Positions 55,197-57,418 of a stretch of 64,000 bases of DNA are shown piece after piece. Position 1 is the first letter of the stretch, and each line of letters starts with the position of its first letter. The position numbers and the translations under genes are program-made. Under the pieces are notes generated by a model. That model was not told where the DNA came from. It did no database searches and worked only from the letters and a program-made list of their open reading frames with translations. Origin of the DNA: Termitomyces sp. T153 (lineage: Eukaryota > Basidiomycota > Agaricomycetes > Agaricales > Lyophyllaceae); assembly GCA_018296165.2 (NCBI GenBank), contig JACKQL020000017.1, positions 496,001 to 560,000 of the forward strand. The letters are read 5' to 3'.

Positions 55197-56176
55197 ATGT
55201 CTTTCTCAGACTCTCGCTCACCCTCGCCCTCTTCTTCTTCTCCACGCAAACGGCCCCGCACCGACGCCACTTCTGAGGAACGCAAGGAGGCCCGTGCGCA
55301 CAGAAACCGCATCGCTGCCCAGAACTCGCGGGACCGCCGCAAAGCGCAGTTTGCGTACCTCGAGCAGCGTGTTGCCGAGCTCGAAGAGGAGAACCGCATC
55401 CTCCGGGCTCGGCGCGGTGTCCCTCTCCCCCATGAGCGTGAGAACGAGGAGCTCAGGGAGCGCATCAAGACGCTCGAGCGCGGCTGGGACGCCGTCGTCA
55501 AAGCCCTCGCCGCCCAAGGCCTTCCTCTTGTCGCCCCACCAACTCCACCACCACCAGCCCCCGTATTCCCCATCTCCCCCGCACCCTCCCACTCCTCACT
55601 CGACTCCCCCGAGTCCACTCGCCACCTAGCACGGGTGGCGTCCATCGGCTCTCCGATGGCCCTGCAGCGGGTGAACTCGTCCATTTCCCACCAACCGACC
55701 CCGCCGACGACGACGCAGCTATGCAAAACTTCTTCATGGAAATCCTCGCTTCTCCCCTCCCTGCCGACCCAGCGACCCCGAGTACTGCTGCAGCGACCGC
55801 CCCGCGGTCTGCCGCGCAAACGCCCGGGAGCGTCCAGGCGCCGGCTGAGGCGGGTCCTGACGCGACAAAAGTAGCGTTAGCGTCTGGGGTGGAGGCGGAG
55901 GCGGGTGTCGAGATGGGGATGGGGATCGTGGATCTGGCAATCGGGTTGAGTAGGGGCGGAGACGTGGGCGCTGAGAGTACGGGTATCAAGGTGGATCTAG
56001 GACTGATGACGACCGACGAACAACAGCAACAACAACAACAAGGATGGGATAGCGGACTGGAGATGCAGCGTATTCTTGCGTCGCTGGGTGTGATCGAGTC
56101 ACAGCCGTCAGAGTTGGAGATTGAGCTTGGGTGGACGACGTTTGGTGTTGAAGGCACGGGTGTTGGTGTCTTTTGA
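55197..56176 (+). CDS. HAC1: HAC1/XBP1-type bZIP transcription factor, two-frame gene
   Basis: The unfolded-protein-response bZIP. From ATG 55197 the first frame reads MSFSDSRSPSPSSSS, then SEERKEARAHRNRIAAQNSR, DRRKAQFAYLEQRVAELEEE, NRILRARRG: the NRxAAQxSRDRKK-type basic region and leucine zipper of HAC1/XBP1. It runs to a stop at 55874 through a basic tail. A second frame, open from about 55530 to 56176, reads FPPTDPADDDAAMQNFFMEI, LASPLP, GIKVDLGLMTTDE, a Gln run, and LEMQRILASLGVIESQPSEL, an acidic hydrophobic activation-like end. Moving between them needs removal of a length of 3n+2, as in IRE1-spliced mRNAs. A CTG|CAGC site lies at 55662-55668. The exact intron was not resolved. Confidence 0.8.
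55662..55668 (+). promoter_or_regulatory. candidate IRE1 cleavage loop CTG|CAGC
   Basis: This heptamer equals the loop of the XBP1 3' cleavage site (cut after the third base). Three or four flanking pairs (gccc/gggt) could close it with a 6-base loop. A second identical CTGCAGC occurs at 55788-55794. The distance between the two is a multiple of three, so this pair alone would not change frame. Confidence 0.35.
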
Positions 56177-57418
56177 GCGCACAGCGTCGCTCCTTCTCGA
56201 ATCAAAAATCAAGGACACGCATCGCATCGCCCGCTGTATTCATATCACATTCATGCATCCCCTCTTCTCATGGTCATCAGCTCTCATCAGTCTTTCTTTC
56301 TTGCTTTCTCACTTACTCGTCTCCTCGTATCTATTCTCTCTCTCTCTCATCTGGTCTCTCTCGCATCTCATCTCTATCTCATTTTTTACATACACATCAC
56401 ATACATATCATCTCTCGACTCCATACATCTCTCCCGCCCCAGATCAAGATCAAGATCAAGAACCGAAATCCGCCCCACCCCACCCCACCCCACCCCGCTC
56501 GCACTCCACACGCGCAGGCAGCTCAAGCACAACCGCACATCTCAAAAGGTGAATTCTCTGCTCCTCTTCGGGGTCTGAGTAGAGGGCGCCTTGGTAGATG
56601 TTGTGTGTGCATGTGTTTTTGCTGTGTGTGCTGTGTGTGGGTGTCGGTGTTGGTGCCGGTGTTCATTGTATACCTATACTTTTCCCCTCCCCCTCTCTAC
56701 ATACATACATACCTTACGTACGTACGTACGATACCGGATACCGATACCGATGTATGGTGGAAGAATGATATGGTTTATGTGATGTGATGTTTATCTCGTA
56801 TGGGTCCGAATCTTTGTAGCAAGAGTGAAGATAATCAATAATTCTCGCATAGAGCGATGGGATTAGGTTAGGTGATTTCGGTTTTGATGTGTTGAATCGA
56901 AGGAATTTTGAAGGAAAGGAGTCCGGTTTCCGGTTTGAACGTGAAACGTTGAACGTTGAATTGCTTGGTGGTTAGTGTTGCCGTCGATAGGGGTTACGCT
57001 AAGCCGAGCTGAGCCGAAGCCGAAGCCGAAGCCAAAGCCGTGGGCCGTCTTTCCACGTCCACTAAGGTTGATTGAAATTCGAAGGTTAGAGCCTAGCTCG
57101 GTGATCACGAAGGCAGATATGATGAAAACAATGACGGGCAACTTAAATACTAAGTGGTATGGTAGAATCCGGATTGAAACAATTGTCAGGCTAAGTTCCA
57201 CTGCACTGCATGGTCGAGAGGTCTGGATTTATGCACTATTGATATCTCTACTCAGGGATGTTTAAACTAACTCATGAATCTTGCATAGATGAAGATGCTT
57301 TTTGTTTTCTTGGCGCTATGGTTCTGAAGTTCTGATTATCTTCGAAGTTTTGCATCTTTGTTTTTGGCTCTTGCTTCCAGCTCTCTATTTATTCATCCTA
57401 TCAATATCCTGTAGACAG
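56177..57418. other. 3' region of the bZIP gene with microsatellites
   Basis: Pyrimidine-rich 3' UTR-like sequence (ct-rich, 56270-56440), a (cacc/caccc)n tract (about 56473-56497), atac/acgt repeats (56698-56731) and a gccgaa hexamer run (about 57011-57036). No gene recognised. Confidence 0.5.

What the first reader, a model, noticed from the sequence alone, without database searches (positions are those of the whole stretch)
55197..56176. HAC1-like bZIP with its activation half in a second frame: probable IRE1-spliced switch
The basic region and zipper identify a HAC1/XBP1 homologue. The first frame ends in a basic tail at 55874, while a second, clearly protein-like frame (AMQNFFMEILAS.., ..LEMQRILASLGVIESQ) stays open to 56176. 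Known IRE1 introns have length 3n+2 (26 nt in XBP1; 56 and 65 nt reported in basidiomycetes), exactly what is needed here. A CTG|CAGC loop is present, but I could not find a consensus partner site giving a 3n+2 interval, so this lineage may use a divergent second site.
Basis: partly seen in the sequence, partly recalled or inferred. Interest (0 to 1): 0.75.

Follow-up and report, generated by a model that had tools for sequence, protein, structure and literature searches.

The report
Mushroom HAC1 switch with 35-base intron
A gene in a Termitomyces-like fungus carries the two halves of a stress-response regulator in different reading frames, and removal of a predicted 35-base piece, likely by the ER-stress enzyme IRE1, would join them, using a predicted left-hand cut site whose loop does not fit the textbook IRE1 pattern.

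Summary
In detail: a bZIP frame (55197-55874) overlaps a second frame open to 56176, with no GT-AG intron of fitting length inside 55561-55744. Two database proteins, P0014 and P0015, share 187 identical N-terminal residues; one DNA sequence can encode both divergent tails over all 68 overlapping codons, so they look like one gene with and without a 41-nt segment. The same junction in the window removes 55630-55664 (35 nt, 3n+2), cutting TAG|CACG and CTG|CAGC. The 5' cut lies mid-loop on a perfect 7-bp stem, the only such hairpin with 5 or more pairs in the gene. The peptide over it (TRHLARVA) is nearly invariant in the 102 relatives that keep both motifs, and its rare changes keep the stem pairable. 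The genome encodes Ire1 and a Trl1-type ligase. By residues, the 5' loop breaks the CNGNNGN rule at position 6 in all 102. This Ire1 has interface residues linked to relaxed specificity. No RNA from this fungus was seen, the 3' hairpin is weak, and dependence on IRE1 is inferred. A new variant of a known kind.

The parts
55197..55629 (+). Exon 1 of the predicted spliced mRNA: start codon, bZIP basic region and zipper, to ...STRHL plus the first base of an Ala codon
   Evidence: ORF; Pfam bZIP_2/bZIP_1; junction from P0014/P0015
55272..55412 (+). bZIP domain (residues 26-72 of frame 1)
   Evidence: Pfam PF07716 residues 26-72, E 1.4e-10
55620..55640 (+). Predicted 5' splice-site hairpin CGCCACC-[UAG|CACG]-GGUGGCG, 7 Watson-Crick pairs closing a 7-nt loop (the minimum-energy fold adds a U-G pair inside it, leaving 5 nt)
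   Evidence: pair probabilities 0.69-1.0 when the 980-nt gene is folded, 0.24-0.98 in a 101-nt fold
55630..55664 (+). Predicted IRE1-type intron, 35 nt (3n+2), cuts TAG|CACG and CTG|CAGC
   Evidence: same junction as P0014 vs P0015; not GT-AG in any of its 4 equivalent registers
55642..55659 (+). Hairpin inside the intron, CCAUCGG-CUCU-CCGAUGG (7 bp); conservation unknown
   Evidence: pair probabilities 0.90-1.0
55660..55672 (+). Predicted 3' splice site, CTG|CAGC at 55662-55668, with a weak predicted stem
   Evidence: site; stem probability at most 0.14
55665..56176 (+). Exon 2, read in frame 2 after the predicted splicing: AAGELVHF...AMQNFFMEILAS...GVGVF, net charge -0.12 per residue
55665..55874 (+). 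Unspliced tail, read in frame 1: basic (net +0.25 per residue), ends LTRQK*

Best explanation
This is a HAC1/XBP1-type bZIP gene whose two reading frames are likely joined when the ER-stress nuclease IRE1 excises a predicted 35-nt segment (55630-55664) and a Trl1-type ligase would seal the ends. Unspliced mRNA encodes a 225-aa protein with a basic tail (shown by sequence). Spliced mRNA would encode a 314-aa protein that keeps the bZIP and gains an acidic tail, inferred to be the activation domain. The predicted 5' cut sits in the loop of a strong hairpin, UAG|CACG, that keeps only the central G|C of the classic loop rule. The predicted 3' cut sits in a classic CUG|CAGC. Excision at this junction is read from a pair of protein sequences of an unnamed related fungus. 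Here it is inferred from the conserved sites and hairpin. Dependence on ER stress and on IRE1 is inferred from homology and from the presence of Ire1 and ligase genes.
For: (1) P0015 and P0014 are identical for 187 residues up to TRHLA, then diverge into a basic and an acidic tail. A single DNA sequence can encode both tails with 0 mismatches over 68 codons; the minimum over 200 shuffles is 37. A second pair, P0078/P0154, fits the same junction with 4 mismatches over 74 codons (shuffle minimum 38), though its N-termini do not line up residue by residue. (2) 8 of 183 retrieved proteins read [H/Q]LA|AGG. (3) In the window this junction removes 35 nt and gives an open 314-aa frame. None of its four equivalent registers is GT-AG, and only one has G|C at both cuts. 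(4) The 5' hairpin is the only one on the gene's + strand with a G|C-centred 7-nt loop and 5 or more contiguous pairs. In the 64 kb, both strands, 9 such loops have 7 or more pairs and 2 of these have 7 or more Watson-Crick pairs. Random synonymous coding of the same peptide gives 7 Watson-Crick pairs in 0.7% of trials and 7 pairs with G-U in 1.8%, with the gene's codon usage. (5) 102 of 183 proteins keep frame 1 through both motifs; 92 of the 102 read TRHLARVA exactly. Val changes only to Met (2), the one other residue that keeps the stem opposite His, or to Leu (1) together with His to Gln, which restores it. (6) The residue before the 3' cut is Leu in 86 and Gln in 16 of 102, as CTG and CAG would give (the pattern allowed only these two). 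(7) The Ire1 RNase domain, an Ire1 gene with its other parts and tRNA ligase domains are in the genome.
Against: No RNA from this fungus and no DNA of any relative was seen. P0014 and P0015 are known only as proteins from short contigs (1344 and 1381 nt, a difference of 37, not 41) of unstated type, so that P0014 comes from spliced RNA is inferred. The 5' loop breaks the CNGNNGN rule at positions 1 and 6. The minimum-energy fold closes that loop to 5 nt with a U-G pair, and in a 101-nt fold the outer stem pairs drop to 0.24-0.51. The 3' hairpin is weak (at most 0.14), and the folding energy of the region is not unusual (z -0.69; 0.16, a stretch that cuts off part of the 5' stem). P0140 and P0144 read TRHP|AAGG, and many other frame-2 gene models use other junctions such as DAPP|GGS; I take these for computed guesses but cannot show it. 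A query aimed at the junction found no spliced Termitomyces protein (6 hits). The 102 were picked by resemblance from capped lists, and all implied lengths are 3n+2 by construction.
Confidence: 0.88

Rival explanations
1. CTG|CAGC at 55664 is the 5' site and the 3' site lies downstream: either ATG|CAAA after 55723 (59 nt), fusing MAL to QNFFMEIL, or the full-consensus CCG|CGGT after 55804 (140 nt).
For: ATG|CAA is, by eye, the only G|C on a frame-2 codon boundary between 55667 and 55803; the conserved frame-2 protein begins there. CCG|CGGT fits CNG|CNGN at a 3n+2 distance.
Against: The P0014/P0015 junction uses CTG|CAGC as the 3' site. Neither site is a G|C-centred 7-nt loop with 5 or more pairs. 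Most listed relatives have Met-Glu or Met-Asp at the first, which cannot be G|C. The second would delete the conserved AMQNFFMEIL.
Confidence: 0.04
2. An ordinary spliceosomal intron joins the frames.
For: Many annotated relatives carry annotated introns at various junctions. In the window 4 GC-AG removals of 3n+2 exist on paper, e.g. 55621-55667, and 23 AT-AC.
Against: No GT-AG removal of 3n+2 and 20-149 nt lies inside 55561-55744; GT-AG candidates reaching further downstream have weak donors. The junction read in P0014/P0015 corresponds in the window to ends GC..CT, CA..TG, AC..GC or CG..CA, none GT-AG. The implied 32-56 nt with near-invariant flanking peptides is not expected of such introns (inference).
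Confidence: 0.05
3. No processing: frame 2 is a by-product or a sequencing error, or a -1 ribosomal frameshift is used.
For: 3n+2 is also equal to a -1 shift; many database proteins stop at the end of frame 1.
Against: One or the other frame recurs in proteins of dozens of Agaricomycete genera, so it is no sequencing error; P0014 lacks the residues RVATTERPSSVSL of P0015 rather than shifting frame in place; no slippery heptamer was seen at the overlap by eye (no tool was run).
Confidence: 0.03

Closest known systems
Cryptococcus neoformans HXL1 (PMC3154848, passages read)
   Same: Basidiomycete bZIP; Ire1-dependent removal of a short 3n+2 unconventional intron downstream of the bZIP; new C-terminus; borders predicted there to form stem-loops.
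   Different: 56-nt intron; no HXL1 sequence was compared here, so whether its 5' loop is also divergent is unknown.
Ustilago maydis cib1 (PMC4836707, passages read)
   Same: Basidiomycete Hac1-like UPR regulator.
   Different: Its intron length (65 nt in the finding) was not stated in the passages seen; sequence not compared.
Metazoan XBP1 and yeast HAC1
   Same: bZIP with an IRE1 intron (26 nt in XBP1); 7-nt loops cut after the third base; the 3' loop here, CUG|CAGC, fits both published motifs.
   Different: Here the predicted 5' loop is UAG|CACG: G|C kept, positions 1 and 6 not; 35-nt intron.
S. pombe Ire1 substrates (RIDD; PMC6037481 and PMC8104961, passages read)
   Same: Relaxed loop needs around G|C; this genome's Ire1 has the S. 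pombe-like interface pattern.
   Different: S. pombe sites are UG|C and lead to decay, not splicing; here the 5' site is AG|C.

Membership tests
HAC1/XBP1-type IRE1-spliced bZIP | bZIP domain in the first exon | tested here: met
   Pfam
HAC1/XBP1-type IRE1-spliced bZIP | Short non-GT-AG segment whose removal (3n+2) joins two frames | tested here: met
   As sequence. The excision itself was read in relatives P0014/P0015, not in this species
HAC1/XBP1-type IRE1-spliced bZIP | Stem of about 5 or more pairs and a 7-nt loop at the 5' site, cut after position 3 | tested here: met
   7 Watson-Crick pairs around 7 nt; the minimum-energy fold adds a U-G pair inside the loop
HAC1/XBP1-type IRE1-spliced bZIP | Loop consensus CNGNNGN at the 5' site | tested here: not met
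   UAGCACG: U at 1, C at 6. By residues, 99 of 102 relatives must have U at 1 and 102 of 102 cannot have G at 6
HAC1/XBP1-type IRE1-spliced bZIP | Loop consensus at the 3' site | tested here: met
   CUGCAGC in the window. Relatives are compatible by residue: Leu or Gln before the cut in 102 of 102, the only two the pattern allowed
HAC1/XBP1-type IRE1-spliced bZIP | Stable stem at the 3' site | tested here: inconclusive
   probability at most 0.14
HAC1/XBP1-type IRE1-spliced bZIP | Ire1 and an RNA ligase in the same genome | tested here: met
   Ire1; ligase domains; the two PF09511 stretches sit in read-through frames with one TAG each, exon structure not resolved
HAC1/XBP1-type IRE1-spliced bZIP | Splicing depends on Ire1 and rises with ER stress | not testable with these tools
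   needs RNA
HAC1/XBP1-type IRE1-spliced bZIP | Spliced protein activates UPR genes | not testable with these tools
   needs experiment

The most novel reading that the evidence does not exclude
Across mushroom-forming fungi the UPR intron is cut at two unlike loops: a classic CNG|CNGN loop on the right and, on the left, a strong hairpin whose 7-nt loop (UNG|CNCG) keeps only G|C. This is a clade-wide departure from the IRE1 loop rule, matched by an Ire1 with a relaxed-type dimer interface, so specificity at the 5' site would come from the stem rather than the loop sequence.
Probability: 0.65. Interest if true: 0.68.

Novelty: new variant of a known kind. Interest (0 to 1): 0.6.

Why it matters
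If true, it places both cut sites of the UPR switch in mushroom-forming fungi, a group where one genome paper found Ire1 and ligase but no clear Hac1 (PMC4101180, one passage read). It also predicts that a natural splicing substrate breaks the loop rule known from yeast and human IRE1. That makes the question of what sets IRE1 specificity (loop letters, stem, or dimer interface) directly testable with two short RNAs and a few purified enzymes. It further gives a simple rule (TRHLA|AGG) for correcting gene models and for building stress reporters in enzyme-secreting fungi.

Tried and rejected
Downstream 3' sites: CNG|CNGN-like pairs (up to one mismatch in the pair) with 3n+2 spacing of 14-330 nt in 55400-56000 were listed. 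Six full-consensus pairs exist, all ending at CCG|CGGT after 55804; each would delete most or all of the conserved AMQNFFMEIL or leave it out of frame. CTG|CAGC as 5' site with partners at 55678 or 55723 was considered and dropped when P0014/P0015 showed the junction upstream; so was a Polyporales CAG|CTGG candidate inferred by eye from protein frames. GT-AG introns. Rfam: two sub-threshold matches, E 0.31 and 9.2. Viral contigs: one scan, no relative. The metagenome collection was capped at 0 scans and the GTDB collection holds only prokaryotes, so no relative's DNA was read. Pairing of the intron with the 300 nt upstream of the ATG, as in yeast HAC1, gave nothing (longest run 8, 262 of 300 shuffles as good). 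An XBP1u-like hydrophobic segment in the unspliced tail was not seen (best 19-residue mean -0.15). Whole-region folding energy is not unusual. The pairing-feasibility count is not discriminating by itself (every variant reaches 7); the discriminating comparison is. Of the 8 proteins with the junction, three (P0131, P0134, P0172) had no close unspliced partner among those in hand.

Full report
What is there. At 55197-55874 lies a 225-codon frame with a bZIP domain (Pfam PF07716 E 1.4e-10, PF00170 E 1.4e-8). A second frame is open from 55442 to 56176. The host is Termitomyces-like: the query is 98% identical over the 51% it shares with a frame-1 protein of Termitomyces 'cryptogamus' (P0002), and 98% identical over 71% of the region searched with a frame-2 protein of Termitomyces sp. 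Mn162 (P0001). The assembly is 72 Mb, and the gene's only DNA match in it is itself.

Where the cut is. I first looked downstream of CTG|CAGC. In 55400-56000 its only full-consensus CNG|CNGN partner at a 3n+2 distance is CCG|CGGT after 55804, 140 nt away, which would delete the conserved AMQNFFMEIL. No GT-AG removal of 3n+2 and 20-149 nt lies inside 55561-55744; 4 GC-AG and 23 AT-AC removals do (GT-AG candidates reaching further, with weak donors). A neutral query holding both frames brought 460 proteins at E up to 1e-3, of which 120 were listed. A profile of 14 proteins (the window's predicted spliced form and 13 retrieved ones) brought 500, of which 120 were listed, 63 of them new, making 183 proteins in hand. 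Two of them decide the matter. P0015 (longest contig 1381 nt) reads ...TRHLARVATTERPSSVSL|QRVASNSS.... P0014 (longest contig 1344 nt) is identical for 187 residues up to TRHLA and continues AGGLELFSTS...VDDSAMEDLFREIF...TVGVF. A codon-by-codon search found a DNA sequence that encodes both tails in two frames over all 68 overlapping codons without a mismatch; 200 shuffles of the second tail gave at least 37 mismatches. So the two look like one gene with and without a 41-nt segment (for the length). The contig lengths differ by 37, so their ends must differ too, and the contigs' DNA and nature were not available. P0078/P0154 (TRQLARLA... and TRQLA|AGG) fit the same junction with 4 mismatches over 74 codons, shuffle minimum 38; their N-termini do not line up residue by residue, so they may be sister species. 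In all, 8 of 183 proteins read [H/Q]LA|AGG: P0014, P0083, P0122, P0126, P0131, P0134, P0154, P0172. Two Mycena models (P0140, P0144) read TRHP|AAGG instead, and many other frame-2 models use still other junctions, which I did not count.

In the window the same junction removes 35 nt. Four registers give the same product; only removal of 55630-55664 puts G|C at both cuts, TAG|CACG and CTG|CAGC. None of the four is GT-AG. The product is a 314-aa protein...STRHLAAGELVHFPPTDPADDDAAMQNFFMEILAS...GVGVF.

The 5' hairpin. The predicted 5' cut falls after the third base of a 7-nt loop closed by seven Watson-Crick pairs, CGCCACC-UAG|CACG-GGUGGCG. On the gene's + strand it is the only G|C-centred 7-nt loop with 5 or more contiguous pairs. 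On both strands of the 64 kb, 9 such loops have 7 or more pairs and 2 of these have 7 or more Watson-Crick pairs. Folded within the whole gene its pairs have probabilities of 0.69 to 1.0; in a 101-nt stretch the outer three fall to 0.24-0.51. The minimum-energy fold adds a U-G pair inside the loop, leaving 5 nt. Random synonymous coding of the same peptide gives seven Watson-Crick pairs in 0.7% of trials and seven pairs with G-U allowed in 1.8% (gene's codon usage). The whole-region folding energy is not unusual, and the 3' hairpin is weak (at most 0.14). A second hairpin, 55642-55659, lies inside the intron; whether it is conserved is unknown.

Conservation. Of 183 proteins, 111 hold an LQR-like motif after residue 110, and 102 of these have an octapeptide at least 4/8 like TRHLARVA within 32 residues upstream; a strict pattern also finds 102. 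The nine left out mostly carry unrelated LQ or QQ stretches. 92 of 102 read TRHLARVA exactly. Ala and Arg at the loop are invariant (102 of 102). Val is replaced by Met in two, and by Leu in one, which also has Gln for His. Opposite His, only Val and Met allow seven pairs; Leu allows six unless His also changes, and Gln-Leu restores seven. This is a small but specific sign that RNA pairing, not only protein, is kept. Just before the 3' cut the residue is Leu in 86 and Gln in 16 (as CTG or CAG would give, whose pattern allowed only these two). Implied intron lengths run from 32 to 56 nt with 47 commonest; all are 3n+2 by construction.

The enzyme side. The genome encodes the Ire1 RNase domain (best E 1e-20) in a gene whose frames also read as luminal, membrane and kinase parts by eye, and tRNA ligase domains (PF09511 E 3.9e-36, PF08302 E 1e-15). 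Aligned with yeast Ire1 and numbered by the residue names in PMC8104961 (passages), it has Asn, Asp and Lys at positions 988, 992 and 1059. That paper calls D/E at 992 with K/R at 1059 the S. pombe-like pattern and reports that K992D,Y1059R makes yeast Ire1 more tolerant of loop sequence, down to G|C on a BIP1-derived substrate. On HAC1-derived loops the same mutant still needed CNG|NNGN. The paper also says the vast majority of species have this pattern, so the match is consistent with a loose 5' loop but does not prove it.

Against the known rule. The published rule is a seven-residue loop CNGNNGN on a stem of about five pairs (PMC3149027, passages), CNG|CAGN in mammals (PMC8674358, passages) and CNG|CNGN or CNG|ANGN in S. 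cerevisiae (PMC6037481, passages). The 3' loop CUG|CAGC fits. The 5' loop UAG|CACG keeps G3|C4 but has U at 1 and C at 6. From residues alone, Leu forces U at position 1 in 99 of 102 relatives, and Arg forbids G at position 6 in 102 of 102. Within the proteins in hand the departure is therefore general, not a quirk of this genome.

Function. Unspliced product: bZIP with a basic tail (net +0.25 per residue here; median +0.22 in 80 unspliced relatives). Spliced product: bZIP with an acidic tail (-0.12 per residue here), presumably the activation domain. I found neither pairing of the intron with the leader nor a hydrophobic segment in the unspliced tail, so how the unspliced form is held silent is open.

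Novelty. Searches (listings read) showed no paper that maps this intron in Agaricomycetes; most subscription journals are not held. HXL1 of Cryptococcus is the closest studied case (56 nt), and that paper names Laccaria and Coprinopsis homologues. This is a new variant of a known kind.

Noticed in passing
protein P0125: Trametes (Pycnoporus) cinnabarina BN946_scf184782.g5 looks like an orthologue (STRHLAR..., MDDLFREIL; bZIP by Pfam), although its genome paper PMC4101180 reported no clear Hac1/XBP1 orthologue.
   Followed up: partly
G000:C3:1156600-1160600 (-), L011: Ire1 of this genome has Asn/Asp/Lys at the positions of yeast E988/K992/Y1059, the S. pombe-like interface pattern linked to relaxed RNase specificity.
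   Followed up: yes
window 55665-55874: Unspliced tails of relatives are strongly basic: median +0.22 net charge per residue in 80 proteins, 48 of 80 ending in three Lys/Arg. Function, if any, unknown.
   Followed up: partly
window 55642-55659: A perfect 7-bp hairpin sits inside the 35-nt intron beside the 5' hairpin.
   Followed up: no
proteins P0023, P0025, P0029, P0034 and others: Several Polyporaceae gene models share a junction DAPP|GGS that would need a very short intron ending near CTGCAG, perhaps a forced GT-AG guess around the IRE1 site.
   Followed up: no
window 56470-56500: A CCCCA-type short tandem repeat lies about 300 bases downstream of the stop codon.
   Followed up: no
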